Source: Albugo candida (Eukaryota; Oomycota; Peronosporomycetes; Albuginales; Albuginaceae). From it: 64,000 nt of DNA. Below the pieces are notes generated by a model, which ran no database searches, was not told the origin of the DNA, and saw nothing but the letters and a program-made list of their open reading frames with translations. Made by a program: the position numbers and the translations under genes. This document shows positions 19,552-54,205 of the stretch, one piece after another. The DNA is taken from the NCBI GenBank assembly GCA_905220665.1, contig CAJNAR010000181.1, positions 62,001 through 126,000 on the forward strand, written 5' to 3'. Position 1 is the first letter of the stretch. Every line of letters starts with the position of its first letter.

Positions 19552-20795
19552 TTAGGGGCATCTCTCTCGTATGAGTTCCTTCTTCTTTTGACGCAACTCT
19601 TTTCGACTAGTTGCGATTGTTGGCGGCAATATATCCCGAAACCGCACCGTTTTACGCAATGAAGACGTAATTTGGTCGACATCTTGGTCACCAGACTTGA
19701 TCGGCATGACGGAGATGACTGATGGTGAAGTCTTGTGTGCTTTCGCAGTCTCAATTCGGTCTTTTTGCCTCTTTCTCCATCTCTGAAATAAAAGACGTCA
19801 CTGCAGATTCAGGTAGTAAATGGTAAAGTGACCGTTACCGCTTCAAAATCTTCAGTCCGAAATCCATCAAGTGACAAATTAATCCGTTTCGGTGGTGAGC
19901 TTGTCTCGATGTCGCCTAACGCACGAATACTATCGTAATGCTCGCTGTCGCTAAAATAAAGATGAACAAGTCGTTGCGGCCGTCCATCATACTCAATTAA
20001 CATGGGAACGCTAGCGCTCTGATCAATGCAGAACGCTTTAGCACACTCCGAACCTCACCCCATCTTCGCACCTGATGAATGAGGATATCGGCATCAAAAT
20101 ATTGAGACGCCGCAAAAATTTCCTGATTGCCTCCCCAAACTCCATCTTGACGCATTCTTTCGACATACTGTCCCAAATAATCAGATAGCTCATATGAAAG
20201 CATTGAAAGAAGTAAGTACATGATCGAAGGACTCCGTGGCTTCGAGAAAAGGCTCGAACAAGCATCTCTTTTCTATGATGTAATCCATGACTCGCTAGGG
20301 GTAGCAATACGTGTCATGTTTCCGCCGGTGTATGTCCAAAGCAGAGTTACCCTCCGAATAAGCTGATGAAGATGCTGCCCTCCATACAGTTGGTCACTGA
20401 GAGCGCTACGCTAAATGTGGAACGATTGTAAAAACCATTAAGATGAGTCGAGTTCGTCAGGCTTCCAAGAAAGTACAATCAGACCGAAAGAGGCAGTTTC
20501 CGTCAGCTTCGATATCCTGACACATACAAGGATGAAGGATGAATAATGACCAAGGATCTCATCCATGAAATGAACTATCGACGTACTACTAAATAACATC
20601 CAATACAATCCAGGTATTCTTTGATTGCTTTGTCTGTGCTATTTGAGAACTTGACTTGATTCGCTGCTTTATTCTTGTGTGTGGCGAAACGTTTTTTTTC
20701 TTTCTGTTCAGAAGATAAAGATAATCAGATGTTATTAGCTGATCGCACGAGTTCAGACAAATATATGATGCCTTTTTGTCACCCTTTTTTGCCAT
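19552..20795 (-). CDS. OTU-domain deubiquitinase (OTUD3-like)
   Basis: This is a cysteine protease expected to remove ubiquitin. Minus-strand exons: 20,772-20,795 (tentative), 20,590-20,703, 20,485-20,516, 20,351-20,405, 20,220-20,294, 20,072-20,167, 19,839-20,018 and 19,552-19,782, giving about 268 residues. The tiny 32-bp exon encodes the catalytic ADGNCLF (Cys about 54). Further motifs are ALSDQLYGGQHLHQLIRR, FEPFLEATESFDH, YVERMRQDGVWGGNQE and the His-bearing SDSEHYDSIR (His about 159). All OTU core blocks join in frame through introns of 52-79 bp. The N-terminus is basic. The first intron would need a GC-AG donor and is uncertain. The C-terminal exon is Arg/Lys-rich and low in complexity. 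A decayed copy lies at about 48,060-48,990. Confidence 0.87.
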
Positions 20796-21364
20796 TCTTC
20801 AGGAGGCTTCTATTCAAATGATATAGCCAACAACGTATCATCCTCCTCGCGAGGTACACAGATGGCAAAAAAGGCTTCAACAGCATGTGAAGTAAAATGT
20901 AACCATTAAGTCAATTCCTCAACATGGGGCGTCTAACGCATGCGGGTCCTACACAGTACTTTTACATGTGGCATCAATTTGTGCACGCCATTCCAATTTA
21001 GGCACTTCTACGTATGCCCTCTCATCACTCATATGTTTGGTGAGACTGGTCCGAGACTCATCCGCAGCGATCGTTGGCTTTTTGACTGCCGAAATTGAAC
21101 GTTCGTATGTAAATATCAGGCAACGCACGAGTGTATGTGTCATTATGCTTCAGAAAAACGAAACGCACGGGCGAGAAGGAGAATTCAAGCGGGATGATCC
21201 TTGTCTCTCGCCTTTATTCATAAAGTCGCACAATATACGGGGTACAATATGGAGTGACGTGGCAATACAATGATAGATGAACTTGTGAGATCTTCTTTTT
21301 GGGACCAAGTCTAAGTCGATCATAATACAATTCGCGGCCTTCAGACCATCTCAAAGCATTCAAT
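20796..21364. other. Divergent intergenic region, OTU / polygalacturonase 1
   Basis: This is shared upstream DNA of two divergently oriented genes. The first part aligns by eye to about 48,985-49,060 in the second block. Open frames here show no recognisable domain. Confidence 0.5.
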
Positions 21365-22538: not shown

Positions 22539-23279
22539 ATACGTGTAGTTCTGTGTTTGTTCTGTAAATCCAAATTAAAAGATCGTAGATGCACTCCACG
22601 AGTAATCTCCCGAGAAATAAATGCATTTTGAGTAGCTCGACGTCGACTGGGAGAAGACAGTTTTCTAGTTGATTTTCAAGTGCATCTTCATAAGTAGTCG
22701 ATAAGCCAAGATCATTCCTTGCAAACAACGTCTCCACAGTAGCAAAGCTATCAGTACTTATCTCGAGTCAGGCAGCTAGTCTACTAGTTTTGAGCTTTTC
22801 TGTCCGACTCTTCTTCGGTTTTGATTCTTGAGGTATATAAGAACTGGAGTAATCGCTAGATTCTTCATACGCCCCAGATATCATTTGTAGCGACCAGATC
22901 GCAGCGCTAGTATAAGCTTTCGAAGTCTATATTTTGTTCTGACTTGGTTGCCCGTCTTCTGACCCGCCTTAGAGCTAGCTGCGACTAAACATCCATTAGC
23001 TACAAATGTCTTGCTATTAGAAATCTGAAAATCAATTTGGAATGACTGCCCATTTATAATGTATCGAACATAGACGCACAAACTACATAGCTATTGATCT
23101 ATCATGTGTTGTCGTGATTCAGATACAAATATTCTGCAGCTTTTCTGACGGCAATTGATTTGAAGGATCCAGATAGGAATACAACCAGAATTATCTTGAA
23201 CTTTCTTCGAATCACGCTGACAATTTTTCGCATAGAAAAGGACTCGAAAGCGCACATCCAATTTCAACGAGTACGATAA
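22539..23279. other. Intergenic, polygalacturonase 1 to secreted protein 1
   Basis: No gene is recognised. From about 22,985 on, the sequence aligns closely with about 51,050-51,348 of the second block. Before that, similarity is patchier. The 3' part is the promoter region of the secreted protein. Confidence 0.55.
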
Positions 23280-23295: not shown

Positions 23296-23310
23296 GATTG
23301 AATCTCCACA

Positions 23311-23772
23311 ATGCAAATCATCACCATCTCGATCGTCTCTGCACTCTACGTATCCATTGCAGTACAATGCGAAGAAGAAACTCATCGTACAGCTGCAGGA
23401 CTACGCGGTGGAATAAACGACATTCTTGGACACTCTACAGCGGTCATAAACAAAAACAATGCCGTGGTCGGTAACAATATTGGTGTCGTACGAAGCAATA
23501 TCTTAGCTACTCAGAACGACAAGTTTCATTTTGAACAAAGCATTGAAGACGTGATTGCGAATAATCCTAATCAAGACACTGCCACCATTTCAAAAAATAT
23601 CATCCGCGCCGTGTCACAAAAAAGTCCCAATACGTTGACGTTGTCCCGTGCACAAGCCGTTGTCGATGCCGCTCGAGGGGACCGGAGTATGCTTCGCGAT
23701 CGGATCATGGATCTGATGACCGCAGTGATTACAGAAGAAGGAGTTGACAATAAAGAAGACGTTCGGGCTTAG
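23311..23772 (+). CDS. Small secreted protein, candidate effector (copy 1)
   Basis: A 153-residue protein with a clear signal peptide (MQIITISIVSALYVSIAV, cleavage probably before or after QC at 19-20). The mature part is polar and Asn/Asp-rich, with HRTAAGLRGG just after cleavage and predicted amphipathic helices over about 75-145. It has a single Cys at the signal peptide end and no RXLR, CHXC or LFLAK motif that I can see, and I recognise no family. It differs from the copy at 51,380 at only four residues (one Ile/Val mid-protein, three in the acidic C-terminal tail). An oomycete core promoter sits immediately upstream. Secretion plus duplication in a plant-cell-wall-enzyme neighbourhood suggests a role at the host interface; that is inference. 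Confidence 0.8.
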   Translation: MQIITISIVSALYVSIAVQCEEETHRTAAGLRGGINDILGHSTAVINKNNAVVGNNIGVVRSNILATQNDKFHFEQSIEDVIANNPNQDTATISKNIIRAVSQKSPNTLTLSRAQAVVDAARGDRSMLRDRIMDLMTAVITEEGVDNKEDVRA

Positions 23773-24414: not shown

Positions 24415-25971
24415 TTAACCTGTATCCGGCCGAAATGCGTTGGAAACGCCGTTATTGGGGTTGCTTGCTGAAATTGATGCTGGCGTAGCTTCATCGTAAT
24501 TCATAAAATGTTGATTGTTCGAAAACTCCAAAAATAATGTGAATAGTAGGTGCAGGGATTCATAAATATTCTTATACATTGGGATATCGAGAATGGCACA
24601 TATAATGCGAACGTACTTCTCTAGTGAGAGATCCAGTGATGATGTAGGAAGTGATACTTTCGTCAGCAAATCTTCAAATTCTTCTGGCCACATCTGCATC
24701 AGCATCTCTACGTCTGGCATCGTCTTCGTATAATGAACTTGCGGAGAAGGTTCGGTTCGATGCAAATCCGTGATGCTCTTTATCCACCGATCAATCTCCA
24801 AGGTTGATTTTTCAGCATTCTCAATACTGCGAACAATCACATCGCCGTGTTTTTTCTTGGACGCGGCCCGAAGTTGCAAATCCAAAACCGTCGCATCCGA
24901 CGGATTCAACCTCGGCTCATCGAGCAACTTGAGGCCAAGGTTATCTGGTTCCCCATCCGGACGAGGAATCTTGAGAAATGGGTCCATTTCACCCACGGCG
25001 GGAATGTATGCCGGTATGAAACATTTTAGCTGCGCCTCAAGCTCGATTTCTTGTAGTTTATTCCAACCTATGTACTGAAATAGTTCCCGTACTTCTGCTG
25101 AAACTTTGAGATGTGCAAAATTAGATTCTTTATATTCTAACCATCAAACAAAGCCGCTAGCTTGGCTGTATTGCCTTCTGTTGTTGAGTTCGGTTTATCA
25201 GTGTCGGAAGGTTCCTCCACATTTTCTTCATCACTTTCAGACTCAATGGAGAAAGATTTAGACGAGGAAGATGCCGATTCTTGTACTGTGCTTTTCACCT
25301 GAGGAGAAGGTCTGCTAGTCGATTCCAAATGTTGTTCAACAAATGAATCTTTCAGAGTAGCAGTCTGCGTCTTTTCCGAAGATATTGCCTTTTCTTTCAA
25401 TCCTTTACTGTCCGACATGGCGGGCTTCGGCTCTCGAGCAATAATTCCCAATTTATCCGAATCTTCTGCCGAATTGAGAGTATTATCGGGAAAAACTTGA
25501 CGTTTGTGACTCGGCACGTTCACTGCTTAATCGCTCAGCATAACCTCTTCATCAGATAATTTTTTTTATGTAAGCGCTTACCATTTCATCAGCAGAATAA
25601 ATTGGCATTCGATCAGATGGCTGTAGCTCTCGATACGGACTATTATGATCTTGAAAGCTTCCGGATAGGTCCAAGGCTTCATCAAAGGGTTGATTTTTGA
25701 CTATTTTCGTGCTTTTCGGCTCCAATATAGTATCGCTTTCTCCCGATTCAGAACTGGATTCACTCAGCTCCATTTCTTCGTCGAAAGGCTGGTTGTATAA
25801 GGCTTTATTGCCCTTGAATTTGATGGCTGTACCGGTCGCGCTGCTTTCTTCCCTTTCGACTTCGCTTTGTTCAGACTCGGAAATCTCGTCTTCGCTTTCG
25901 GATGCATCGCTATAGGATATATTATCATCGCTTTCAGTGTCTTTGAATCTATTACGCGTAGCTTTTCTCAT
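24415..25971 (-). pseudogene. IFT46: IFT46 pseudogene (left copy)
   Basis: This is a near-identical copy of the intact IFT46 at 52,469-54,058, but broken. Compared with the intact copy it has a frameshift plus a small deletion around 25,555, where one PFDEE-type repeat is lost. It also has an in-frame stop in the next acidic segment (around 25,527) and a one-base deletion near 25,138, at the start of the conserved IFT46 domain. A further segment has an internal deletion of about 18 codons or less near 25,600. The conserved C-terminal domain (GEMDPFLKIPRPDGEPDN to LHLLFTLFLEFSNNQHF) remains open but cannot be reached from the normal start. High identity outside the lesions means the loss is recent or the copy was recently homogenised. 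Confidence 0.9.
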
Positions 25972-26098: not shown

Positions 26099-27030
26099 AA
26101 AGTTTTAACCGCCGAATCGTCACGTTTCTTCCCAAGCTTTTCTATAGTTTATCAGAATAACCAAATTACTTTTGCACTTAGAATACTGGCTCCATAAACT
26201 GACTGAGCTGAGAGCGATGCTGTTTAATCACGATCTACGCGACAACATGATATCAGAAAGTGCTCCTATCCAGCACATTGGTTGCATGCTTCTACTCATG
26301 TAAGTTCTCATATCTCAATATGTGCGCATCCAGAAAAAAGCCAATTTCTATCTCAAAAGAAGTCTAGCGCTATACATGTTATCTGGTGCTAATGGGAATT
26401 TATTTCATGAGTCTATTTTCTTCCTCACCACCCTTTTGTGGTATATCAAGATGTATCCTGTTCAATTATCGATGTACCTTATCTCGTGCACCACTTCCAT
26501 ACGCTGTTAATTGCGCGCATGTCAGGGGTCACTACTTGTCTAGCTTGATGTTGTTTTGTATCGCCTCTATCATCGATGATCATAGACTAAGGTCTCAAAA
26601 CTGCAATTATCGAGAAAGTGATAGTTGTGATAGACATTATCATAGTCTAAGATTTTGAGACGTTCCTAGTCGAGGAGTATCTGGCTACGGCAGAAGATTA
26701 GGTGGTAAAAGTTGATGTTGGATTGGAGAGTTTGGTAGAAGCAGCATGCATCAGGCAACTGCCTACTTGATATGGTATTCTGGCTGTTTGCAGCCAGAAT
26801 TTGAAAGAAGACGAATACACCGGCAACTACGTCGAAAGAAACAATACTGGATTGCTTTACTTGTCAAATTCAAAAATGCACTGGTTTATAAATCTAAGTT
26901 TGAGGAGGTTTGTACATTCGGGTCCAGTATGGTGAAAGAGGGGTATGCATAATCAGCTTTTTTATAACCCCTACAAGACTCAGTATGATATGCTTCGTTT
27001 GTACAAGGTACACTGAAGGTTTCTCAGCAA
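26099..27030. other. Spacer right of the left duplicated block
   Basis: No gene is recognised. Near 26,588-26,660 two related blocks (CATAGACTAAGGTCTCAAAAC and CATAGTCTAAGATTTTGAGAC are 21-mers given here only by their first and last bases CATAG..AAAAC and CATAG..GAGAC) form an imperfect direct and inverted repeat. Confidence 0.4.
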
Positions 27031-27035
27031 TATCT

Positions 27036-27390
27036 TTCCTCCCCTTGCGTACCTGCCTTTTCTTGTCCGTTCACTTTCTCCGCAGCAAAAAAGCCAAAAC
27101 CAACCATGTACCCTTCTGTAGCTATCTCCATTAATTGGATATCAGTACTATCTCTTAGTTCTACGGTGTAATTTGAGTCATCGTGCTGTAGTTTCAAGTC
27201 AGGTACTAATTTGTGTACCTCTAGCATCTCCTCACAAGTGTCATAACTATGGCCAAATCGAATAGCGCTTTGATGCATTGTAACTAAGGCCTTACAAACA
27301 TTAATGATGCTATATCGATATGGTTCTTTCGCTTGTACCTCTGACTCCTGTATAAGCGCTAGGTACGATGAAGAATTTTATAGTCAATGC
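27036..27390 (-). CDS. Hypothetical coding fragment
   Basis: A minus-strand frame stays open from about 27,390 to a stop at 27,024. It reads as a plausible folded protein with mixed helix and strand character (for example YRYSIINVCKALVTMHQSA, then CEEMLEVHKLVPDLKLQHDD). Upstream it is bounded by a stop, next to a possible splice acceptor. I recognise no family. It lies 70 bp left of the gypsy insertion site, so it may be the surviving 3' part of a gene cut by that element. Confidence 0.3.
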
Positions 27391-27461
27391 AGTTGTTGCG
27401 TGCTTTTCTAGACTCAATTAATTAGTGTTTCGCAAAACAATCCTGAGTCTATGTAGAGGCA

Positions 27462-27665
27462 TGTTGTGAATTAGAAGGGCGCTCACATTCCTGAAAACCT
27501 CTGCTCCGGTAGTTACGAAACAGCCACCCCCTCAAGCGCCGGTAGTTACGAAGAAACTAATTCTAGGAGTCACATAGGGGTGCCAAAGATCATAGCATGC
27601 AATTTTAATTTCTTTGATAAAATTCTCAAACTTGCCTCCAGGCGCACGGATCCGCCAAAAAGTAT
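27462..27665 (+). repeat. gypsy 5' LTR
   Basis: Begins TGTTGTGAATTAG and matches the 3' LTR at about 45,528-45,723 with substitutions and small indels. Its 3' limit is approximate. Confidence 0.75.
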
Positions 27666-30600
27666 ACTTTTGGTATAGCAATCAAGTCAAGCATAGCCGG
27701 TATCTCAACGCAAGAAGATGTCGACTTTTCGGATGGCTGATGAAGACGTCGAGATGACGCCCGCTTACATCACAGCACCGGAGCATATCACGGCGCCAAG
27801 ACTAATTAACTGGAACCAGTTATGGCTAATCCGCTGACTTCACCAGCGGAGTGGTATGAGTGACCTCTTCGCTAGAGCTTCTCTGGAACAGGAGAGCAGT
27901 ATGACACCATCGCAGTGACTATAAAAGGCTTTATCGATGCGGGAATGCTCAACAACATGGCGCTCTATGTCCTATTTAGGGATTTGGAGACGCCTACCGA
28001 CTCCGACATTTTGCAAGAGATCAATCGGCGTTGCATCACACTGAAGAATAATCATCTCCCGGACTTTGAGGCTTTTTACGCCGAGAAGCTGCGAATGGAC
28101 CTCAAAGAAGACGACGTTGAAGCCCGGTTCTGGAAGTATTTCGCCTGTTTCAACAAGATCTTGAGCAAATATGGGCTCCAACATGTTTGATGGTACACAC
28201 CAAGGCCAAAGGTCACGATGCGATAGTGCAGACAACGGACAGGACAAAGATCCTGATTGATAACCTCGCTCCCACAACGCTGAGGCGACTGGTTGCCCTC
28301 GAGTATTACAAGGCCAAGGCTAATGAAAAATCTCTATGTAATCTGATTCTGGAACGTGCTCGTGAGCAACAGCATTACTTCCTGATGACAAAAGACGATA
28401 AAGTAAAGCATACTACACAAAGAAAACCACCATCAGTAGTAATTCTCATTTCCAGAATGTTATGGGTTCCATGAAAGGCAACGACACGTCTCGACCATCA
28501 AGGCAGCTCCCAATAAAACAGCAGCTTCCCCACCACACCGCGATGACTTTCTGGTATGAAAAGGGTCCACTGGGTGTCTGAGTGTCCAACTGCATCCAGC
28601 GCACATAAGGATGAAGTCAAAGGAGCCATGCGAGAGCGCATGGCAGCACGTACTTCAGCAAAGCAAACCACACTCTCTTTGAACCAAGAATCAAAGCTAT
28701 CAGCGGTCCTAGAGGGTAATTGGGAGGTCCCCCTGTGCGCTGACTCGGGTTCAAATGTACCCATCATTCCAGCAGTCTTTTTCTTGGCCTTTCACCCGAC
28801 ACGCACGTGACGACCAACCTCCGTTACCCTGTTAGTGTGGAGTTGGCTTGTGGTGCCACGTTTGTCTACCTCGAGCGAGTGATATTGGACGTCCAAGTAC
28901 GTATTGCTGCAGAAGCGGCCAACATCAGGGGTGCTGGCTGTCTCATCCTGTACGAAGAAGAAGACCAATTTATTCTTGGCAAAGATACTCTCAGCAGTCT
29001 TGGTATCGGCGGAGGATCCATTATCGCTAATCTAGAAGAGGGACCAGCCACCGATCCAGACGGTGATGATCTTACCACCAATAGTGCTGCTGAAGTTGGT
29101 CTCGAAGTCGATTCAGACATCCTAAATCTTCTGTCTTCAATGGAGAACACAGCACTGCTGGAAGAGTGTAAGGATTGTGGACTCGCGCATGAATTATATG
29201 AACTCCCCGTCCAACACAGAGTTATTTGGTGGAACCAGCTGGTCCATGATCCACCTGCAACGGTTGAGCCCCTCTTTGGTGAAGTTCCAGGTCGACGCTT
29301 ACCCTGTAACTTCCAAGACAAGACCGTATCTAAAGCAACAAAGTGATTATCTGCGTTCCTACTTCGCCAAGCTATAGCGGCTGGGTTTCGTTCACCGCAA
29401 CAATCACAGCCACTGATCCTCGCCTGCATTAACAGTTTGCAAGGGCCTCAACAGATGAATCTCGCACTACAGTTGATTACTCTCGAGTCAACAGTCTTGT
29501 GATTCCTCTGACTGGAGCCATGCCAGATATGAAGGCAGCGACCGCTCGCCTCTCAGGATCAAAGTATTATGCTCACTTTGACAGTTTAATAGGCTTTTGG
29601 CAGCTCGCACTGCATCCGGACTGCCAGAAGCAGTTCTCAATAGTTGCTTAGGAAGCGTGTACACCCCGACCCGTATGCCGCGGGGAGCTACTGACTCTGC
29701 AATTCATTAGCAGAACCAGATGCACACGGTGTATTCTCCATTGTTGCATGACAACTTACTGTCCCAAGTTTATGATATTATCGTCTTCGCCCAAACTAGA
29801 AACAAATTTGTCGACAAGATTCGTCACTTCTATGAAGTGACTGCGCAGTATGGCCTGGAGATAAGTGTCACGAAGAGTCTACTCTTATGCCGAGAGGTAC
29901 TGTGGCGCTGCAAGGTCTTAAGTGGAACAGGTGTACGAAATGATCCCGCTCGACTTGCCGCATTTACATCCCTTCCGGCTCCCAGTAATGCAGCTGATCT
30001 GCAACGTCTACTGTGCCAGTAACTGGCTATATGATTCGGTCATAGAATTTTCTCGCACTGCAGTACCGCTCTACGACAAACTCGACGCTGTATTTTAGAA
30101 AACGAGTCACGCTAAACGTATTGCAGCCGGTATATCATTGACTTGGACATCTAATGAACTTGACGCATTCAATGCTTTCCTCGTTACCCTTCAGTCGCTC
30201 AGCTTTCGTTCCCACAAGATCAGGCAACCTTCTGTGCTCTTACTGACGCCTCCAAGTGTGGATGGGCTCTCATTGCTACTCAAGTTCGTATGTCCGGGAA
30301 GACAACCGAGTTGAAGAACAAGCCTCTGAGTTGCTTGCATGTATTGGTAGCATTTTCCGTGGAAGACAGATCAACTGGTTAGTCACGGAAAAAGAAGGAT
30401 ACTCGATCATTGAAGCATGTATTAAACTCGAGGTTCTGCTGGCTCGATTCCGTTGATTTCGTCTATTTTTCGATCACGCAAACTTGATTCAGATATTTTT
30501 GCCGGCTCAGTCCGTAAGCGTCACATCTGTGGAAAGATGCAGCGCTGGGCTCTCAATCTAGTGCCCTACCGATATGAGATTGAACATCTCAGCGGTGAGC

Positions 30601-42417: not shown

Positions 42418-43661
42418 CAGTACCCTACCAAAAAAATGTCATTTTTTTAATCCGTATTTTTCAGACCAACCAAGCGCACTTCAACCACAGTTTACACAAC
42501 CATCTTCAGCTCAATGCCTCTCAACCTTTGAACAATGGTTCTAATGCATATGAAGAAGTGTTTTCCCAAAGAATGATTGATATAGATTGAATGTTAGACA
42601 TTTCATTAATATTGGAGTATGGGTTATACTATCAACGAGTTGATCCACAATTTGAGATCAAAGGCGATGTTGGACGGATTCAAAGTTTTCATGGAGCAGC
42701 AACAAAAACAACTCATCGAGCTCAAGCACGAAGGCGATCTTAAGACGTCTGAATTAACGGAAACACAAACGACTCTTGTGGACAAGATGGAGGCAAGAAC
42801 TTCCTGAATCCTACCTTGGAGGGTGTCGACTAATCTTTTCAACCAATCTTCATCTATATTGGACCAAACATCTTAAGTTTGATGCTACAATTCTTCTTCA
42901 TTTCTCCCATGAGAAGCTTCTGGATCTGATCTTTGAGTCTCGCCCACACATGTTCGATTGGGTTTAGATCTGGCGAATTTGGTGACCAATTTATCTTTGC
43001 AACGCCTATTTTACCCCTCCATTTCCTATGGGCATTGCTTTGATGGATCGAATCGCCATCTTCTATTACCAATGGACAATTGAGCTCACCCCAAAATCTG
43101 CCCAATCCAATATCATAGACTTGTTCGACAAATTCAACTGCTGCCCGCCGATTCCGACCTGTGCGGATCGATCGACTCTTCTTTTTTCCTTGTAAGGCAC
43201 CCCAGACCATCACTGAATAGCTCCCTGATTTGAAAGAGGGCGTCAGACATTCTGGATAGTACCTCTCATAGGCTGTTCTCCAGACAAGCGGCTTGCGGAA
43301 ATCCTTGCCAATTTCAAAGCTGACTTTGCGTACCAAGTGCCTAACATCCCTTTCATCAAGTTTTTTTTGGTCATCCTGGGCTTTTCATGGGAATACCACT
43401 GGATTTATTGCGGTAGTGCTTCACAATGCGCTGTACTTGTCTTTGACTGATTCCGAAATGAGATGCAATTAAGGGAGTTTTCTGACCAGTCAACTTCATT
43501 CCGACCAGACGTCTTCTATTCTCAATAGGTAAGGTTTTAGTTTCCAGAGTTTTAGTGGCCATAGTTTTGTTTTTGGAAGTGAGACAAGTGAATGGGAAGG
43601 GAGCGCATCGTCAATTAGAATTTTAAATATAAAAAACGACAATCTTTTTGGTAGGGTACTG
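42418..43661 (-). mobile_element. Defective Tc1/mariner element inside copia-4
   Basis: It has terminal inverted repeats CAGTACCCTACCAAAAA at the left end and its exact reverse complement at the right, with looser similarity further in. A TA follows the right end; the left flank is AA, probably a mutated TA. The minus-strand transposase has a helix-turn-helix head at 43,562-43,371 (LPIENRRRLVGMKL, SHFGISQRQVQRIVKHY) and a catalytic tail at 43,336-42,854 (SVMVWGALQGKKK, WSPNSPDLNPIEHVW). The head is joined almost directly to the middle of the family's catalytic domain. The second DNA-binding half and the first catalytic Asp region are therefore missing, and the junction is also out of frame. 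It is non-autonomous. Confidence 0.9.
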
Positions 43662-45241
43662 TACACACGACTAGCACCTTATTCTTCTTTTCACCCTCTA
43701 ACACTCGTGCTCCATCACTAGTACGCTTTAAACAGCGACGCCTGTCTTAGTAGCTCAGCGCAACTCCTTTTTCTTCCAGGTAACAGTATGATAGCAGGTT
43801 TTGGGTGAGGTCCTGGGCACAGTAGACGTCTCTCAATGTAATGAAGTGGGTGACACCATCCACAGAGGCTTGCAACGAGACTCGACCCATCTTCGTGACC
43901 TTGATAGCTCGATCATAAGCGACATCATACTTGTCAAAGAAATCAACCGAGTCGATCATCATGCTAGCATCCATCACCAGATGCCTGCTAGCGCTACTAT
44001 CAAGAATCCAGGCCTGCTCCCCACCATGTATAGTGGTACCGATGCTTAAAGCATTTGAGGTGTGCTTACCACCCGGTTTTAGCTTAGCCTCTCTCCTGGT
44101 ATGCCCGAGCTTGTTGCATCCGCAGCATCTTCTCCCATCGCCGGAACTCAATGCCTATTCAGCAACATTAGCACCATGGCATTACTTCGGCCGTAAGCGG
44201 ATTGTCGCCCCCCCCACACTAAGCACATGTGCGCATACCTCGTGCTCAGACGTACTGGCGAAGTCCGCCATATCCCATGCCTGCTTGAGATAGTCAGTGC
44301 GGCGACGATCGAGTCGCGTTTGCATGGCTCGCTTCATCTCCGGTGTTGCCCCTTCGCATATGTACTGGATCACAGAACGATCCGGGAAGTTAGTCGGGTT
44401 TACCACGGCAACCGTGTATTGATAATGCTCCGTCCAGGACCGATCGTTTGGCTTACGAGCTCGTATAAATCGTTTTGCTTGCTTTACAGTGATTTCTCTG
44501 TCGTACACCTCCATCATCTTGCTCATCAAGTGTTTAACTGTAGGCACTTCGGATGCCCAGACGCCTTTCATCTTGACGAAATGCTTTCTAGAAATTTCAT
44601 CGAGATACCGATTAAGTCTCCTCATATTGTATTCTTAAGCCCATTCACCTCCTCTTAAGCGCTGGGCCGCGCCAAGTTAATCCAGGAACTGCAATCTCCA
44701 GTCCTTAAACCTTGCTCCAAGTCCTTTGTATTCTTCCTTTCCAGTGAAGCGCTCGATAGGCAGCTTCATGTCCTGGACGGTCGGCATCTTGACCCCAAAG
44801 TCCTGTGACGGGCAGAAGTTCTGTCTCGGCTTAGCGTAAGCTTGCGCTGTGGGCTGGACCGTGGGGAAATATTGCTGGTGATGCTGTTGCACACCAAACG
44901 GCACTTTCACACCCATCGCTTCACAGATCGAGTCCGCTCTGGTCCGATTCCGTTCAGCAGTCAAGAATTAACTGAAGACACTCGAACCCCTACCCAAACG
45001 GGTCTCAGGATCTGCAAGAGGCATCTGGTCCCACTCCGCGCGTTCCCGCGTCAAGTCGCGCATCAGATTAGCAATGAGCTTCTCAAGTCTATCTAGACGA
45101 TCTGCACAATGCTCGGAGTTCCCACGTTCTCTCGCTTGAGAGATGTCCGAGCTGTCGCTTGTCGTCTCGTCAATCGCATGTGGGTCGAGAGCACTTGGTG
45201 AAGCTGCTGGAAGGTCTTTCAGGGGGCTTGACCTTATGACT

Positions 45242-45395
45242 TGTTAATTACTAGCACTAGTTCAGTATGAAGTAAATGAGAAACTCTATGTATTTCGATC
45301 TTATGGTCTCTGCATTACCTCGCATGCCCGTTACCTCCGCCCGTTTTTAGGGTCGCGTTGTGCCCTTTCACCTCACCATTCCCTTCCTTTCAGCA
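45242..45395 (-). repeat. copia-4 5' LTR
   Basis: The partner of 32,011-32,164 and of the same length. Plus-strand edges are TGTTAATTACTAGC at the left and CCTTCCTTTCAGCA at the right. Confidence 0.9.
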
Positions 45396-45527
45396 CTTGG
45401 AAGCCGTTACCCGGCTTCGATGTGGATGCCCCGACTCAGTGTCTGCGTTCTTCTACGCACACCCATCGTCGCCTGATGTCATTCGCCTCCAGCGTGAACT
45501 CAAGTGATATTTGCCTTCGGAAAGGGG

Positions 45528-45723
45528 TGCGTTGTGGATTATAAGGGCTCATATTCCTGAACCCCCTGCGACAGTATTTACGAAACAACCAGCCCCTCAA
45601 GTGCCGCCAGTTACGAAACAGTTAAGTCTAGGAAGCACCCAGGGGTGCCAAAAGATCATAGCATGCATATTAACTTCTTTTATACAGTTCTTAACTTGCC
45701 TCCAAGAGCACGGATGCACCATA
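45528..45723 (+). repeat. gypsy 3' LTR
   Basis: Matches 27,462-27,665 and is followed by AGGCA, the presumed target duplication. The start is approximate. Confidence 0.75.
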
Positions 45724-45861
45724 AGGCATTGTATTTGGGAGAATTCTCTGAGAGGAGTCAGGAAACTTCTAAATGATGACTCACAGAGATTACATATGTG
45801 AGTCATGTTACTAATGAAAGTAATGCCGGTAACATTACTTCATGTATAGTTGTTATAAGGC

Positions 45862-46278
45862 TTAGGTTAGCTGACAGTGAACTAAGGACCTTAGCATTAA
45901 TATCTCTTCTATATTTTCTTTTTTCGACTCAAGTTCCACCAAATAGAAACGAATAGCTACATCAGAAAATACTGGCCACGTGCTTGTGAGATATTGCAAT
46001 TCTGACAATGTCTCAATTTGCTCCATATTTCTCGATATAATCAACAGCCTTGGGATGATGAGGTGTTTCGTGCACCGCCAAGGTTGTTCTCTATCGGTAA
46101 TGCAAAATTCCAGACAAAAGTCGTGATACCATAAAATTTGGCAACCTTGGTATGGGTACGTTGATGGCTGTATCGATACTTCTTTCGCCAGCTCTACTAC
46201 TGATCGTGTACGTAGCACAAACCTGAGGTTATCGATCCATAGCACGCTGACCCACTTCCTCGGCAACTTCCCTTTCAC
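45862..46278 (-). CDS. Hypothetical open frame right of the nest
   Basis: A 138-codon minus-strand frame with fairly normal amino-acid composition (for example ISRNMEQIETLSELQYLTST). No domain is recognised, there is no conserved copy in the window, and no splice structure is supported. It could be an exon of a gene split by the gypsy insertion (see the frame at 27,036-27,390), or chance. Confidence 0.25.
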   Translation of the reverse strand: MKGKLPRKWVSVLWIDNLRFVLRTRSVVELAKEVSIQPSTYPYQGCQILWYHDFCLEFCITDREQPWRCTKHLIIPRLLIISRNMEQIETLSELQYLTSTWPVFSDVAIRFYLVELESKKENIEEILMLRSLVHCQLT

Positions 46279-46820
46279 GACATGTGTACCAGCTAGCTAG
46301 TGAGTCGATAAATGAGTTACGTACGGTAAAAACGTTGTGTCCTGGATAGCTCCGTTTCATGTCATTATTTTAATGCTAATAGAAGAGAAAGAGGACTTTG
46401 TGAGTAAATATTTGTAAACCTAATTATACAAGATACAATCATGTATTAGATGAGCAAGTGTTGCGCTGCAAAGACTCGTGGTCCTAGACGCTAAAGCGGA
46501 AACAATAATGAAAGGAACAGAGCATACAATGGAAAAGAATGCTCCAATAAACGCAGTTTATTTCAGCAAAAATACATGATTTAGCACTCTTATGCACGAT
46601 CGCTACATCGACATCGATTCATTCGGCACGTTGGTATTTAACGGATTCGAATATCGACCCGAGGCATGTTACGCATTGTGAAATTTCATCGTATCGGAAC
46701 GCTTTTGCTTGATGGTTAGACTGCATACTCATTGAATGATTCGCAATCACATTTCTGAAAGAGAATTTACGCGAAAAAAATGTAACAAAACTGGTTGTTC
46801 CAAGTGGTTATCTTGATTTG

Positions 46821-47093
46821 TCATGCGACGGTGGCATTGTTATCGATCAAGACGTTGTATGTGTCATGTAATTCTTCCTCAGCGGTGATCGATGCGTTTG
46901 CTAATTTGCATTGTGCTATTTGCTTGAGGTCTAATTCGCGTACATTAGGACTAGTTTGATATATTTCGGATATTTCAAGGCTTCTTGCTAAGGAGACATC
47001 CAAGATTATATCTCGAAGAAAGTTATATATGTGATTGATTGCGCTTACTAGTGAATAATTCAGGGAGACAGATCGAATAGAAGATGGGCACAT
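46821..47093 (-). CDS. Hypothetical open frame
   Basis: A 90-codon minus-strand frame with a leucine-rich helical look (ISEIYQTSPNVRELDLKQIA). No family is recognised and there is no supporting context. Confidence 0.2.
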   Translation of the reverse strand: MCPSSIRSVSLNYSLVSAINHIYNFLRDIILDVSLARSLEISEIYQTSPNVRELDLKQIAQCKLANASITAEEELHDTYNVLIDNNATVA

Positions 47094-47099
47094 GAGACA

Positions 47100-48059
47100 T
47101 TTGAAACTTCCAGGATCAGAACGTTCCTGACCAGCACGACCAAACTACAGCACTTCAATGCATGCCATTATTGCTCATCCATGAGAATCTCTTGGGTCAA
47201 GTTCTGGAGTGAATAAAGAATGCAGCAGATTTGTCGGACGTGTAGTATCGTGCATCGCTACTGGCAATCAGAGAAGTGCGGCTTTGAATTGAACCAATTC
47301 AAATGTCTCAATTATACTTCTTCTCACAGCTAGCGACTCAAGAACTGGTGTCCTCGGGCAAAAGGATGCCTCCTTGGGCAGCGCAAAGTTAGGATCCTAC
47401 ATATCAAAATTACCTGTTGCTGAGATAAAATCCCCACTTCAGTTTCATCACGATATCTTCAGTGTACGCGGCCCAATAGTACTTTATCTTGGTGTTTCTT
47501 TGCTTCTATGGAACGCTCAACCTCAAAATACCAAATAATTTATAAGGCTTGCTTGCGGTGTATACCAACAAGATTACAAGCCAAAGTTATTCTTTGCCCG
47601 GCAGCAAGACTAAATAAGATTGAATCAGAAGCCCTTCTCCTGCAACATATTTTATGGATTCCAGTTGTTACATATTCTTTCTATCAAAGGTATGGCATGC
47701 GTCAATTTAGACCTTTCCAGACTCAGCAAACATACGCATTGATGCATCCTTCACAGTACTCAAGTTATCGATCTTAGAGAAAGTTCAAGGTATCGACTGA
47801 CACAAGCAAGAAACGCTTACAAGGGAGAACAAGAGTTTGCTGTTCATCACAATCAAATACACTGAAATCTTGTTACCAAAGTTCTTCGATTCATTCTAAA
47901 TACATGATTCTCTCTTCATAATGTTGAGAAGTTGCATCATGGATGCTTTCCTTCAGTCTGCACTCATGCATTCTATACAATAGTCCAGCAAGACTTAAGG
48001 AGGAAGCATTTAGACTTAATCTGGTTTTGCTGAGGTGCGGTCAAAATCCTCACTAACGT
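47100..48059. other. No gene recognised
   Basis: Only short frames without recognisable domains. The right end approaches the second duplicated block. Confidence 0.45.
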
Positions 48060-48990
48060 TTTTTTCGCGCTTCCATCTTCGACGTCTTCACGTGTTCACA
48101 TAGGCGCCAGAGATACATCAAGAAGAAATCTAAGGTGTCAACCACTCTCGCTCATACAAAATCAGGTGTCTTGTTATCATGGGAGTTGTCTCTTTGGGTG
48201 CCCAGTCGAGTCAGGACCTAAAGAAATCGCGTCGATGAGTTATCTGTCCCCTTTTTTGATTTAGAGAAAAGTTTTGTATGATTGCCTCTTATCGCCAGAA
48301 AACTATCGAAGCGCTCACTGTAGCAAGTGTACAATGTGTCCGGTCATCTAAGTATACAAAGCGTCGCGAGGTCGCAATTGTCTCCTAGAACTGCAACTTG
48401 ACGTTTCCTCTCAACATATAGTCCCATATCAAAATGGACTCCATGTCGTCGAGAGACCGGATTGAAGGATTCTCTCAATTTTATGAAATGTGAGTCCCTA
48501 GCAGCTTCTTACTTTGCGTCACGTTTGAATCCAATGCATGTCAAAAACATAATGAGCTCACTCGGAAGAATCAGATGAAGATGTTGGTCTCTAGACATGG
48601 CGTCATCGAGCGCGCAACGCTAAACTTGGAAGTAGAGTAAGTAGCATAAAGACAATTAGAGTTCATGAAATTGGTAATAATGCAACCGGACCAATATTGA
48701 CAGTTTGCAACAGCTTCGATACCCTGACATATACGAAGATGAAGAATGACGAATGAGTCTATCCATGGAAATGATCGACATACTATATTATGCCACCAGG
48801 TTTTCTTTGATGCTTTGTCTGATGCTATTTACGCACTTGTTAGTGAAATCGCTACTTGGTTCTTCTGATCGGCGAAATGCTTTTTTCTGTTCAGGAGATA
48901 AGAATAGTCAGACACTGTAAGCTGATCGCAAAAATTCACACAAATATATCATGCGATTTGTCCCCTTTTTTGTTTTTCTTCAGAAGCTTA
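48060..48990 (-). pseudogene. OTU-domain pseudogene (right copy)
   Basis: Nucleotide blocks of the intact OTU gene recur in order with many changes. Plus-strand examples are AGCTTCGATACCCTGACATA against AGCTTCGATATCCTGACACA around the exon encoding the catalytic Cys, and ACTTGACGTTTCCTCTCAAC against the YVERMRQDG exon. The N-terminal basic exon also has a counterpart near 48,860-48,985. Open frames are lost throughout. The left limit is uncertain. Confidence 0.78.
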
Positions 48991-49573
48991 TAATCCAAAT
49001 GGTGTCGACTGCAAGTGTCATCCCCCTGGGTGCTAGCAGGGTACCCACATGGCAAGTTAGGCTCCCACCTCATGTAATGCATAATATAATCTTAAAGGCA
49101 ATCTAGCATCAGGTAGCATCACCATACACGCTGATTCATTTATCTACTTCTACATACACCGCTAGTAAACGTACGCAATTTCAATCGAGAACTTCTACAT
49201 GTGCGCAGTCACCACGCACATGTTTGCTAATATTGATTCATGTCATTTAAATTCTCACAGGGAGAGTAGAAGCTGGAGTGCGCAGATGTTTTGGCTTCTT
49301 TGAAGATCAGGAAGTACACCACAATATGTGTTTGTTTTCCAGGAAAGGAAACGCACGCTCAAAATAGAGAATTCAGGGGGTTGAATTTACTCTTTTTCGC
49401 CTTTGAGCAAGAATCCAAATGGCACAAAGAAATGGTGGCAGCCCTGCTTATATTCCGTAAAGGTTCAACATTGAGTGATGCACTACTGATAGCAGAAGAA
49501 TTTAAAAGACTTTTCGTTCTTGGTCGATCATATTACGATTTGCGGCCTTAAAAACATCTTTAAGCATTAGAAA
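48991..49573. other. Upstream region of polygalacturonase 2
   Basis: Partly alignable to 20,800-21,364. A short plus-strand frame (49,291-49,551) has no recognised domain. The last 60 bp are similar to those before polygalacturonase 1. Confidence 0.5.
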
Positions 49574-50695
49574 ATGTTGTCGAAACATCAAGCATTCTAT
49601 ATATTTATGCTGCTAGAGTGCGCACTCGCAAAATTTCCAGACCCTTGCAGTATCTTTGAAATTTACGACGCCAGAGTAACGAGAGCAATACTCAAAAGTA
49701 AATGCACCACGGTCACTTTCGGAAATCTAAAGGTACCCGCTGGGAAACAACTCGATTTGCGCGACCTCCCAGAAGGCATGACACTAAAATTCACCGGAAA
49801 GATTGTTTTCGAATGCAATGCACGAAGTAAGAAAGCTGTGGACTATCTCGTATCGATCGAAGGGAAAAATGTGCATATCACCGGCACAAGGGGTAATTCG
49901 TTTGATGGGAACGGTGCATGCTACTGGGATAAGAAGAAGAAAAATGGCAAAATGAAGCCTAAATTTTTCCTATTTCACTTAGTCGACTCTCACGTCGAAA
50001 ACCTCAACGTTTTAAATGCACCTGCTCATATCTTCATGATATCCAATTCACAAAAGACAATCTTCAACAATATCAGGATCGACAATTCAGCCGGAGACGG
50101 GCTTGCCAGCAATACGGATGGGTTTCACCTGACGCAATCGACGAATATCATGATTAGAAACTGCTACGTACATAATCAAGATGATTGCTTCACGGTAACA
50201 TCTGGAAACAACATTACGTTTACACAATCAACTTGTCTCGGAGGCAATGGCGCATCTATCGGATCGATCGGTCTCAAGCGGGCAAATGACGTTGACGACG
50301 TAACTATATCCTACATTACTATCACAGATAGCCTCAACGGTTTTCGCATCAAGACTATACAATACGCGAAGGGAACTGTGTCCAACATCAAGGTGAGCGA
50401 CCTCATTTTGAACAACATCTCGGGTTTCGGCATTTTGGTTCGTCAAGACTACTTGAACGCACAAGGCAATGTACCAAGTCGAACGCCTACCAACAGAGTT
50501 ACCATCACAGGACTGATTATTAAAAATGTCGAAGGTTACGTTGCAGAAAAAGCACAGCGGGTCCTTGTTTACTGCGGAGTTGGCTCGTGCTCCAATTGGC
50601 GGTGGAGCAATATAAATATTCAGGGTGGTTCGAAGGAACGACTTGCCAAATGCCTGAATCTGCCAACAGGTTCGACCGGTGTGAAGTGTATATGA
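49574..50695 (+). CDS. Secreted polygalacturonase-like protein, GH28 (copy 2)
   Basis: An intronless 373-residue paralogue of 21,365-22,538. The signal peptide is MLSKHQAFYIFMLLECALA. Motifs are NTD at 180-182, QDD at 202-204, RIK at 258-260, and a motif III of GNG at 224-226 (GGNGASIGSIG) where the family has GHG. The key positions fall at the same numbers as Asp180, Asp201/202, His223, Arg256 and Lys258 of the well-studied Aspergillus niger endopolygalacturonase II, give or take two. Only the His is altered. C-terminal Cys residues are conserved (CGVGSCSNW, KCLN, VKCI). Protein identity with copy 1 is clearly lower than for the neighbouring duplicated genes. It is probably extracellular; activity is doubtful, and a binding or decoy role is possible but unproven. 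Confidence 0.93.
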   Translation: MLSKHQAFYIFMLLECALAKFPDPCSIFEIYDARVTRAILKSKCTTVTFGNLKVPAGKQLDLRDLPEGMTLKFTGKIVFECNARSKKAVDYLVSIEGKNVHITGTRGNSFDGNGACYWDKKKKNGKMKPKFFLFHLVDSHVENLNVLNAPAHIFMISNSQKTIFNNIRIDNSAGDGLASNTDGFHLTQSTNIMIRNCYVHNQDDCFTVTSGNNITFTQSTCLGGNGASIGSIGLKRANDVDDVTISYITITDSLNGFRIKTIQYAKGTVSNIKVSDLILNNISGFGILVRQDYLNAQGNVPSRTPTNRVTITGLIIKNVEGYVAEKAQRVLVYCGVGSCSNWRWSNINIQGGSKERLAKCLNLPTGSTGVKCI

Positions 50696-51379: not shown

Positions 51380-51841
51380 ATGCAAATCATCACCATCTCG
51401 ATCGTCTCTGCACTCTACGTCTCCATTGCAGTACAATGTGAAGAAGAAACTCATCGTACAGCTGCAGGACTACGCGGTGGAATAAACGACATTCTTGGAC
51501 ACTCTACAGCGGTCATAAACAAAAACAATGCCGTGGTCGGTAACAATATTGGTGTCGTACGAAGCAATATCTTAGCTACTCAGAACGACAAGTTTCATTT
51601 TGAACAAAGCATTGAAGACGTGATTGCGAATAATCCTAATCAAGATACTGCCACCGTCTCAAAAAATATCATCCGCGCCGTGTCACAAAAAAGCCCCAAT
51701 ACGTTGACGTTGTCCCGTGCACAAGCCGTTGTCGATGCCGCTCGAGGGGACCGGAGTATGCTTCGCGATCGGATCATGGATCTGATGACCGCAGTGATTA
51801 CAGAAGAAGAAGATGACAATAAAGAAGACATTCGAGCTTAG
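51380..51841 (+). CDS. Small secreted protein, candidate effector (copy 2)
   Basis: A 153-residue near twin of the protein at 23,311-23,772, with the same signal peptide and core promoter. The four differences are one Val/Ile change in the middle and three in the acidic tail (EEEDDNKEDIRA here, EEGVDNKEDVRA in the other copy). No known family or effector translocation motif is seen. Both copies are open and full length, unlike the flanking OTU and IFT46 pairs. That suggests either selection to keep both or very recent homogenisation. Confidence 0.8.
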   Translation: MQIITISIVSALYVSIAVQCEEETHRTAAGLRGGINDILGHSTAVINKNNAVVGNNIGVVRSNILATQNDKFHFEQSIEDVIANNPNQDTATVSKNIIRAVSQKSPNTLTLSRAQAVVDAARGDRSMLRDRIMDLMTAVITEEEDDNKEDIRA

Positions 51842-52468: not shown

Positions 52469-54058
52469 TTAACCTGTATCCGGCCGAAATGCGTTGGAAA
52501 CGCCGTTATTGGGGTTGCTTGCTGAAATTGATGCTGGCGTAGCTTCATCGTAATTCATAAAATGTTGATTGTTCGAAAACTCCAAAAATAATGTGAATAG
52601 TAGGTGCAGGGATTCATAAATATTCTTATACATTGGGATATCGAGAATGGCACATATAATGCGAACGTACTTCTCTAGTGAGAGATCCAGTGATGATGTA
52701 GGAAGTGATACTTTCGTCAGCAAATCTTCAAATTCTTCTGGCCACATCTGCATCAGCATCTCTACGTCTGGCATCGTCTTCGTATAATGAACTTGTGGAG
52801 GAGGTTTGGTTCGATGCAAATCCGTGATGCTCTTTATCCATCGATCAATCTCCAAGGTTGATTTTTCAGCATTCTCAATACTGCGAACAATCAGATCGCC
52901 GTGTTTTTTCTTGGACGCGGCCCGAAGTTGCAAATCCAAAACCGTCGCATCCGACTGATTCAAACTGGGCTCATCGAGTAACTTGAGGCCAAGGTTATCT
53001 GGTTCCCCATCTGGACGAGGAATCTTGAGAAATGGGTCCATTTCACCCACGGCGGGAATGTATTCCGGTATGAAACATTTTAGCTGCGCCTCAAGCTCGA
53101 TTTCTTGTGGTTTATATCTACCTATGTACTGAAATAGTTCCCGTACTTCTGCTGAAACTTTGAGATGTGCAAAATCAGATTCTTTATATTCCAAACCATC
53201 AAACAAAGCCGCTGGCTTGGCTGTATTGCCTTCTGTTGTTGAGTTCGGTTTATCAGTGTCGGAAGGTTCCTCCACGTTTTCTTCATCACTTTCAGACTCA
53301 CTGGAGGAAGACTCAGACGATGAAGAGGAAGATGCCGATTGTTGTACTGTGCTTTTCACCTGAGGAGAAGGTCTGCTAGTCGATTCCAAATGTTGTTCAA
53401 CAAATGAATCTTTCAGAGTAGCAGTCTGCGTCTTTTCCGAAGATATTGCCTTTTCTTTCAATCCTTTACTGTCCGACATGGCGGGCTTCGGCTCTCGAGA
53501 AGGAAATGCTAATTTATTGGAATCTTTTGCCGAATCGAGAATATTGTCGGGGGAAGCTTGACGTTTGGGACTCGGCACGCTCTCTGCTGAATCGCTCAGC
53601 ACAACCTCTTCATCGAATGGCTTATTTTTTATGTCAGCGCTTATCATTTCATCATCAGAGTAGGTTGGCATGGTATGCGAGGAATTATGCGGCATTCGAT
53701 CAGATGGCTGTAGCTCTCGATGCGGGCTATTAAGATCTTGAAAGCTTCCGGATAGGTCCAAGGCTTCATCAAAGGGTTGATTTTTGACTATTTTCGTGCT
53801 TTTCGGCTCCAATATCGTATCGCTTTCTCCCGATTCAGAACTGGATTCACTCAGCTCCATTTCTTCGTCGAAAGGCTGGTTGTGTAAGGCTTTATTGCCC
53901 TTGGGTTTGCTGGCTGTACCGGTCGCGCTGCTTTCTTCCCTTTCGACTTCGCTTTGTTCAGACTCGGAAATCTCGTCTTCGCTTTCGGATGCATCGCTAT
54001 AGGATATATTATCATCGCTTCCAGCGTCTTTGAATCTATTACGCGTAGCTTTTCTCAT
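52469..54058 (-). CDS. IFT46: Intraflagellar transport protein 46 homologue
   Basis: A subunit of the IFT-B complex that carries cargo, notably outer dynein arms, into flagella. It is a single 529-residue exon. Residues 1 to about 285 are acidic and Ser-rich, with three related repeats NQPFDEEMELSES, NQPFDEALDLSGS and NKPFDEEVVLSDS. The conserved IFT46 domain covers about 290-510, with IGRYKPQEIELEAQLK, FIPEYIPAVGEMDPFLKIPR, DEPSLNQSDATVLDLQLRA, KTMPDVEMLMQMWPEEFE and AILDIPMYKNIYESLHLLFT. A broken copy lies at 24,415-25,971, so this is probably the only working copy here. FCF2 lies directly upstream on the same strand. The presence of IFT46 implies flagellate zoospores. Confidence 0.95.
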   Translation of the reverse strand: MRKATRNRFKDAGSDDNISYSDASESEDEISESEQSEVEREESSATGTASKPKGNKALHNQPFDEEMELSESSSESGESDTILEPKSTKIVKNQPFDEALDLSGSFQDLNSPHRELQPSDRMPHNSSHTMPTYSDDEMISADIKNKPFDEEVVLSDSAESVPSPKRQASPDNILDSAKDSNKLAFPSREPKPAMSDSKGLKEKAISSEKTQTATLKDSFVEQHLESTSRPSPQVKSTVQQSASSSSSSESSSSESESDEENVEEPSDTDKPNSTTEGNTAKPAALFDGLEYKESDFAHLKVSAEVRELFQYIGRYKPQEIELEAQLKCFIPEYIPAVGEMDPFLKIPRPDGEPDNLGLKLLDEPSLNQSDATVLDLQLRAASKKKHGDLIVRSIENAEKSTLEIDRWIKSITDLHRTKPPPQVHYTKTMPDVEMLMQMWPEEFEDLLTKVSLPTSSLDLSLEKYVRIICAILDIPMYKNIYESLHLLFTLFLEFSNNQHFMNYDEATPASISASNPNNGVSNAFRPDTG

Positions 54059-54205
54059 CTACTAGTGCTGTCTACTTGGTAGTGGCGCGACTTAGATTGT
54101 GACCTCTCAAGATCGGGCTCAGCCTGCGTGTGGACGAAGCAGCTCCGACCAGACTCAGGTCTCTTAAGAAACATTATATGGTTAAATCTATAAATTGACC
54201 AAAAG

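What the first reader, a model, noticed from the sequence alone, without database searches (positions are those of the whole stretch)
19560..54184. Duplicated four-gene block with reciprocal gene loss
OTU-polygalacturonase-secreted protein-IFT46 is present twice, about 28 kb apart in the same orientation. OTU is intact on the left and decayed on the right. IFT46 is broken on the left (one stop, at least two shifts) and intact on the right. Both secreted genes survive twice. Each housekeeping gene therefore depends on a different copy, which locks both blocks in place and keeps the extra secreted genes. In populations this pattern can also give incompatible segregants if individuals carry different lesions.
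Basis: partly seen in the sequence, partly recalled or inferred. Interest (0 to 1): 0.85.

Follow-up and report, generated by a model that had tools for sequence, protein, structure and literature searches.

The report
Duplicated gene block patched by copying
In the plant parasite Albugo candida, two similar gene blocks 28 kb apart each hold one working and one dead copy of a different housekeeping gene, but the halves of the blocks have different ages because one stretch was probably copied across, and the layout does not force the parasite to keep both blocks.

Summary
OTU–polygalacturonase (PG)–secreted protein (SP)–IFT46 occurs twice in the same direction (about 19.55–26.10 and 47.42–54.19 kb). 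Left OTU reads as an intact eight-exon gene and right OTU is decayed. Left IFT46 has one nonsense codon and two frameshifting deletions; right IFT46 is intact. PG and SP read open in both blocks; left PG needs one 64-bp intron. The best relatives are Albugo proteins.

The blocks are not one duplication with uniform history. OTU–PG differ by 23–35%, and there the right block is sister to a third copy (C179:145 kb) and the left to two others (C179:232 kb; C188:100 kb). From about 23.0 kb, SP–IFT46 segments differ by 0–16% and left groups with right. The tree switches between 22,927 and 23,132. A 485-bp stretch is identical, although the left gene is dead. Best reading: an old amplified OTU–PG–SP unit, with SP–IFT46 copied later from right to left by ectopic gene conversion.

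Nothing is locked. The intact genes lie at the outer ends, so a loop-out deletion between the direct repeats would keep both. No population evidence for incompatibility could be obtained.

The parts
18664..19163 (+). NDUFS6-like gene (zf-CHCC), left flank of the left block (exact start uncertain); no similarity to it found beside the right block
   Evidence: PF10276 E 2.7e-15 for 18945-19163; joined reading 100% to an Albugo candida protein whose longest contig is 42,358 bases, the contig length also given for the OTU protein P0001; right side
19552..20795 (-). left OTU gene, reads intact, eight exons; the first exon (20795-20783) is the least certain
   Evidence: GT-AG introns 52-83 bp; PF02338 over profile positions 2-128; P0001 agrees over the last four junctions but for one residue
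21365..22538 (+). left polygalacturonase-like gene (GH28), two exons, intron 21608-21671
   Evidence: intron shared with M4 and M5, absent in R and M3; PF00295 for 21672-22538
22927..23132 (.). switch point: to the left, the right block groups with M3; to the right, left block groups with right block
   Evidence: of the two competing site patterns, 37 of 156 for left+right before, 34 of 35 after; 0 of 2,000 permutations as extreme; trees
23311..23772 (+). left secreted-protein gene, open, 153 aa
24257..24741 (.). 485 bases identical to 52311-52795, covering the 3' flank and 3' part of dead left IFT46: taken as the most recent conversion tract
   Evidence: 0 of 485 mismatches
24415..25971 (-). 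left IFT46 pseudogene: one nonsense codon, two frameshifting deletions, two in-frame deletions
26104..47420 (.). DNA between the blocks, with transposon remnants (reverse transcriptase RVT_1 in the ORFs of about 36.8-41.0 kb, probably LINE-type; RVT_2 about 33.3 kb, copia-type; DDE_3 about 42.9 kb; type labels recalled)
   Evidence: Pfam RVT_1, RVT_2, DDE_3; 27.46-29.0 kb repeated on other contigs
47421..49102 (-). right OTU remnant, decayed
49574..50695 (+). right polygalacturonase-like gene, one ORF of 373 aa
   Evidence: PF00295 E 5e-83
51380..51841 (+). right secreted-protein gene, open, 153 aa
52469..54058 (-). right IFT46, intact, 529 aa; the only intact copy found in the assembly
   Evidence: PF12317 E 4e-91; two IFT46 loci matched
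54186..54190 (.). right end of block homology (left 26,101-26,103), inside the 147-bp gap between IFT46 and Fcf2
54206..54760 (-). Fcf2 gene, flank of right IFT46; the left block's similarity ends before it
   Evidence: PF08698 E 1.4e-35; blocks diverge before it

Best explanation
A cluster of at least five OTU-PG-SP units in Albugo candida arose by old duplication from the NDUFS6-OTU site (left), whose OTU stayed alive while the OTU carried along in the other units decayed. The right unit lies beside IFT46-Fcf2, where IFT46 is native. Later the SP-IFT46 stretch of the left block was overwritten, or first laid down, from the right block by ectopic gene conversion (about 3.1 kb, 23.0-26.1 kb). 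At least one more recent, shorter tract (24,257-24,741) refreshed part of the dead left IFT46. The reciprocal loss is therefore two events of different age: an old OTU death in the derived units and a separate IFT46 death in the left copy. Shown: present gene states, conflicting trees, patchy identity, outer/inner layout. Inferred: direction right to left (left SP changes partner; IFT46 sits with Fcf2 only on the right), native sites, and mechanism.
For: OTU-PG tree ((R,M3),(L,(M4,M5))) with 100/100 support and left+right rejected (AU p 1.5e-36). SP tree has left+right at 100/100, R+M3 rejected (p 4.8e-5), and split {L,R,M3}|{M4,M5} at 100/100, so left is the one that moved. Tree switch within 22,927-23,132. 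dS left-right 0.57 in PG but 0.058 in SP. L, M4 and M5 share a PG intron that R and M3 lack. Mismatches clustered in 23.1-26.1 kb (variance/mean 3.83; 0 of 10,000 simulations as high), with a 485-base identical run in a dead gene. Divergence by segment from 20,352 to 26,103: 35.1, 22.9, 30.0, 5.8, 2.2, 7.0, 0, 3.4, 16.3, 2.6%. Left IFT46 evolves without constraint: 42 nonsynonymous, 12 synonymous and 1 nonsense codon differences; of the 43 that change the protein, the A. laibachii residue agrees with right in 25, with left in 5, with neither in 13. OTU remnants also lie beside M3, M4 and M5.
Against: The 208 bases holding the nonsense codon, the 2-bp and the 24-bp deletion differ by 16%, so left IFT46 may be an old resident only partly overwritten, not a recent arrival. 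The end at 26,103 is where homology itself stops, so that edge does not by itself prove conversion. The branch that puts M3 with L and R in the SP tree is short (0.007; 0.003 for the coding part), so the direction is less certain than the conflict. The site patterns are not clean: 45 sites of the third pattern (L+M3) occur and were left out, and they lead in 22,545-22,800 (10 against 5 and 3). The clades tested were named after I had seen blastn identities. The 485-base run includes coding sequence constrained on the right. 68% of predicted genes of A. candida Ac2VRR are said to have no intron (PMC3206522, passage), so an eight-exon OTU gene is unusual there. Trees rest on five units from one assembly without reads or a second isolate's DNA.
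Confidence: 0.72

Rival explanations
1. A single old tandem duplication of OTU-PG-SP-IFT46, with random reciprocal loss afterwards and no exchange between blocks.
For: All four genes in the same order and direction in both blocks; intact genes keep their outer flanks, as expected for the outer copies of a tandem duplication.
Against: Conflicting trees for the two halves and tenfold different dS; 485 identical bases in a dead gene.
Confidence: 0.06
2. Old tandem duplication of the whole four-gene block from one ancestral neighbourhood, with IFT46 in the left block from the start, and repeated conversion of SP-IFT46 later. This is the best explanation with a particular first step; its odds overlap with those given there.
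For: 16% divergence in 25,439-25,646, where three of the five lesions of left IFT46 lie; OTU and IFT46 hits of Plasmopara halstedii report the same longest-contig length, 1,316,030; NDUFS6 and IFT46 of Pythium oligandrum report the same length, 1,775,558.
Against: In P. halstedii NDUFS6 reports another contig length. In P. cinnamomi, P. oleae, P. citrophthora, P. boehmeriae, Aphanomyces invadans and Saprolegnia parasitica the lengths reported for the genes compared differ. No IFT46 was matched beside M3, M4 or M5.
Confidence: 0.35
3. Assembly or haplotype artefact: one block is a misplaced allele.
For: The ends of C179 and C188 overlap at 99.7% over 8.5 kb, so the assembly is not fully resolved in this cluster; no reads available.
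Against: Both blocks lie on one contig with different flanks and 21 kb of other DNA between them; PG differ by 23%, far above the about 1% between races given in the abstract of PMC4384639 (listing); further divergent copies exist.
Confidence: 0.04
4. Left IFT46 or right OTU still makes a product by unusual splicing or frameshifting.
For: Left IFT46 has long open stretches (139, 129 and 242 aa); its three matched segments are 82-94% identical to right.
Against: Nonsense plus two frameshifts; nonsynonymous changes outnumber synonymous 42 to 12; right IFT46 needs no intron; tblastn with the OTU protein finds nothing in the right unit at E up to 10.
Confidence: 0.03

Closest known systems
Ectopic (interlocus) gene conversion within segmental duplications (defined from recall)
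   Same: Tree conflict within the repeat, patchy identity, sharp switch point, identical tract in dead DNA
   Different: One edge of the tract coincides with the end of homology, so template copying past the homology or a short insertion is also possible
Divergent resolution / reciprocal gene loss of duplicates (for example the Mimulus duplicate-gene hybrid lethality, PMC5896889, and rice DGS1/DGS2, PMC5555463; search listing with abstract starts only)
   Same: Different duplicates are the surviving copy
   Different: Those cases concern duplicated genes whose loss differs between species. Here two different genes are lost in complementary copies within one genome, the blocks are 28 kb apart and linked, and no second population was seen
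Mosaic genomes and possible gene conversion in Albugo candida races (PMC4384639, passages read)
   Same: Same species; recombination blocks and conversion-like loss of heterozygosity are discussed
   Different: Those passages concern exchange between races and loss of heterozygosity; this is exchange between paralogues on one contig

Membership tests
Ectopic gene conversion | Segment phylogeny conflicts with that of flanking homologous DNA | tested here: met
   AU p 1.5e-36 and 4.8e-5 in opposite directions
Ectopic gene conversion | Identity rises abruptly, in tracts | tested here: met
   Switch 22,927-23,132; variance/mean 3.83; 485-base identical run
Ectopic gene conversion | Both ends of the tract lie within homologous DNA | tested here: inconclusive
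   Left end yes; right end coincides with end of homology near 26,103/54,190
Single tandem duplication of a four-gene block | Uniform age along the block | tested here: not met
   0 to 35% divergence by segment; dS 0.57 vs 0.058
Reciprocal gene loss | Different genes survive in different copies, no further intact copy found | tested here: met
   OTU left, IFT46 right
Reciprocal gene loss causing incompatibility | Opposite lesions in different individuals or populations | not testable with these tools
   Only one assembly's DNA is held; other isolates appear only as proteins
Blocks locked in place by essential genes | Every deletion that removes one block removes an intact essential gene | tested here: not met
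   Intact genes are at the outer ends of direct repeats; a repeat-mediated deletion would keep both (reasoned from the layout)
OTU-like cysteine protease (PF02338) | Complete OTU domain with catalytic Cys and His motifs in the left gene | tested here: met
   Profile 2-128, E 1.6e-19; the reading holds DGNC and EHYD motifs (motif meaning recalled)
IFT46 (PF12317) | C-terminal IFT46 domain in an open frame | tested here: met
   Right copy, E 4e-91; left copy broken
GH28 polygalacturonase | Catalytic residues of solved endopolygalacturonases conserved | tested here: inconclusive
   NTDG, DD and RIK kept, but the His of the GGHG motif in 2iq7 is Asn in all five units (catalytic roles recalled); activity unknown

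The most novel reading that the evidence does not exclude
A single-copy flagellar gene (IFT46) is in continuing genetic exchange with its own dead copy 28 kb away, dragged along by homogenisation of an adjacent secreted-protein gene. Races of Albugo candida would then differ in which parts of IFT46 and OTU are intact, and crosses between races could yield segregants lacking swimming spores or OTU function.
Probability: 0.08. Interest if true: 0.65.

Novelty: new member of a known kind. Interest (0 to 1): 0.33.

Why it matters
It shows how amplification of a secreted-gene unit can carry along housekeeping genes, leave dead copies behind and later exchange sequence with the live one. It also corrects a tempting reading: complementary losses in direct repeats do not lock the duplication when the live copies sit at the outer ends. 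If races differ, it would be a small, easily genotyped test of divergent resolution in an obligate parasite.

Tried and rejected
Left PG looked broken in the first whole-genome search (stops inside). Inspection showed a 64-bp GT–AG intron shared with two other units, so I dropped that reading.

Left OTU looked broken by frame jumping. GT–AG introns of 52–83 bp explain every jump, and a deposited A. candida protein agrees over the last four junctions but for one residue.

A truncated right OTU was considered because blastn stops at left 20,352. A profile of the units R, M3, M4 and M5 reached left 19,901–20,011 and 20,093–20,298 (E 2.7e-9 and 9.2e-12), so the remnant is longer and decayed. The last exon was not detected.

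An RNA gene as the reason for the identical tract was not supported: 0 tRNAs (bacterial settings) and 0 Rfam matches in the window.

Ancestral linkage of NDUFS6, OTU and IFT46 from contig lengths in protein hits was inconclusive. Search terms Albugo candida, PacBio and CCG found no paper. Oomycete plus 'ectopic gene conversion' found one paper, listed as a plant gene-family study. The main text of PMC3130010 has no occurrence of polygalacturonase, pseudogene or gene conversion; that of PMC3206522 has none of polygalacturonase, pectin or flagell. I make no claim that this is absent from print.
Full report
Setting. The window lies at C179:62001-126000 of a 38.9-Mb assembly. The best protein relatives are Albugo: the OTU gene matches an Albugo candida protein, the joined NDUFS6-like reading is 100% identical to an A. 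candida protein and 81% to an A. laibachii protein. IFT46 is 76% identical to A. laibachii; its closest hit, listed at 100%, comes from an unnamed source and differs at one residue. I therefore take the organism to be Albugo candida.

Observation. Left OTU (19552–20795, minus) splices into a 264-aa protein with a complete OTU domain. P0001, a deposited A. candida protein, is the same across the last four exon junctions but for one residue, and has a different start. Right OTU is decayed: blastn finds 48561–49102, the similarity among the other units extends the remnant to 47421, and tblastn with the OTU protein finds nothing there at E up to 10. Right IFT46 is a single open frame. Left IFT46 carries one nonsense codon, a 1-bp and a 2-bp deletion, and two in-frame deletions. 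Both SP genes are open. Both PG genes are open once a 64-bp intron is taken from the left one. The genome search matched IFT46 at these two loci only. It matched the OTU family at four places: left OTU and three others, of which one shows weak similarity to this gene.

The blocks belong to a larger cluster. PG–SP units also lie at C179:144.6–146.8 (M3, reverse), C179:231.9–234.5 (M4) and C188:98.7–101.3 kb (M5, reverse), with OTU remnants beside M3, M4 and M5. Two more OTU remnants lie at C188:77.1–77.4 and 130.5–130.7 kb, 2.4 kb from more distant PG relatives. The ends of C179 and C188 overlap at 99.7% over 8.5 kb, so the SP at C188:152 kb is probably the M4 copy seen twice and the cluster one region. 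M3's SP is broken. No IFT46 was matched beside M3–M5.

The two halves of the blocks have different histories. In 20,400–22,880 the tree is ((R,M3),(L,(M4,M5))) with full support, and joining left with right is rejected (AU p 1.5e-36). In 23,040–23,890 left and right are sisters with full support, and joining R with M3 is rejected (p 4.8e-5) (the clades were named after blastn identities had been seen). Of 191 sites of the two competing patterns, left+right is backed by 37 of 156 before the break and 34 of 35 after it; the break falls between 22,927 and 23,132, and 0 of 2,000 permutations were as strong. The third pattern (L with M3) was left out of that count: 45 sites, leading with 10 of 18 in 22,545–22,800. 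The PG intron follows the first tree: present in L, M4 and M5, absent in R and M3. Synonymous divergence between left and right is 0.57 for PG and 0.058 for SP (SP of M3 not included). In the SP tree it is left that changes partner, since R stays on M3's side, though that branch is short (0.007). IFT46 has its neighbour Fcf2 only on the right. Both facts point to copying from right to left.

The copied part is itself patchy. Within 23.1–26.1 kb mismatches are clustered beyond chance (variance/mean 3.83, 0 of 10,000 simulations). The segment 24,257–24,741 has 0 mismatches of 485 although left IFT46 is dead. The 208 bases 25,439–25,646, where the nonsense codon, the 2-bp and the 24-bp deletion lie, differ by 16.3%; the 1-bp and 6-bp deletions lie outside it. 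So either left IFT46 is an old resident partly refreshed by conversion, or a younger copy was laid down and later partly refreshed. The evidence does not decide between these. No tRNA or Rfam family was found that would explain the identical stretch.

State of the dead copy. Codon differences between left and right IFT46 are 42 nonsynonymous, 12 synonymous and one nonsense, with 15 codons touched by gaps set aside. Of the 43 amino-acid or stop differences, A. laibachii agrees with right in 25, with left in 5 and with neither in 13. The left copy evolves freely and the right one is conserved.

Does the pattern lock the blocks? No. Intact OTU is outermost on the left and intact IFT46 outermost on the right of two direct repeats. 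Recombination between the repeats, anywhere between left OTU and the IFT46 lesions, deletes about 28 kb and leaves one block with both genes alive. This follows from the layout and was not observed. SP and PG read open in M4 and M5, beside which no live OTU or IFT46 was found, so their retention needs another reason. PG dN/dS ratios are 0.20–0.73 over 10 pairs of units; SP ratios are 0.20–0.26 in five of six pairs and 2.47 in M4–M5, where dS is only 0.009.

Incompatibility. The published hybrid incompatibilities of this kind (listing and abstract starts only) concern duplicates lost differently between species. No second isolate's DNA for this site was available, so this stays untested. PMC4384639 (passages read) reports mosaic genomes of A. 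candida races, evidence of clonal propagation within a race, and mentions gene conversion as a possible cause of low heterozygosity. That makes exchange plausible and segregation within a race rare.

Verdict. Real and correctly observed, wrongly explained in part: an amplified unit plus ectopic conversion, giving complementary losses of different age. Known processes, a neat example, moderate to low interest.

Noticed in passing
window 49574-50695 and 21365-22538, and units M3, M4, M5: All five PG-like proteins keep NTDG, DD and RIK but have Asn where solved endopolygalacturonase 2iq7 has the His of GGHG; four of five more distant paralogues scanned have GGGFS there (the fifth, L014, gave no match to the search pattern). 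The enzymes may be weak, altered or inactive.
   Followed up: partly
C179:233490-241993 and C188:144528-153006: Contig ends overlap at 99.7% over 8.5 kb in opposite orientation, so C179 and C188 probably join and the PG-SP cluster would be one region of about 200 kb.
   Followed up: partly
C179:230.3-237.7 and C188:95.5-102.9 kb: A 7.4-kb stretch holding units M4 and M5 is 97.4% identical: a recent duplication inside the cluster.
   Followed up: no
C146:226-242.7 and 537-547 kb; C149:56.7-57.8 and 91-95.5 kb: Tandem arrays of weak SP relatives (42-46% over about 50-70 residues) at roughly 0.8-0.9 kb steps.
   Followed up: no
window 27463-27660, 32011-32167 and 45242-45724: Repeated pieces (80% and 88%) within the DNA between the blocks, possibly ends of transposons.
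   Followed up: no
window 101-335 and 4454-4687: Inverted repeat pair, 81% over 236 columns, also matching just left of the window; may flank a mobile element.
   Followed up: no
P0001: The deposited A. candida OTU protein starts in another frame and so lacks the DGNC motif that the spliced gene here encodes; likely an annotation error at its 5' end.
   Followed up: partly
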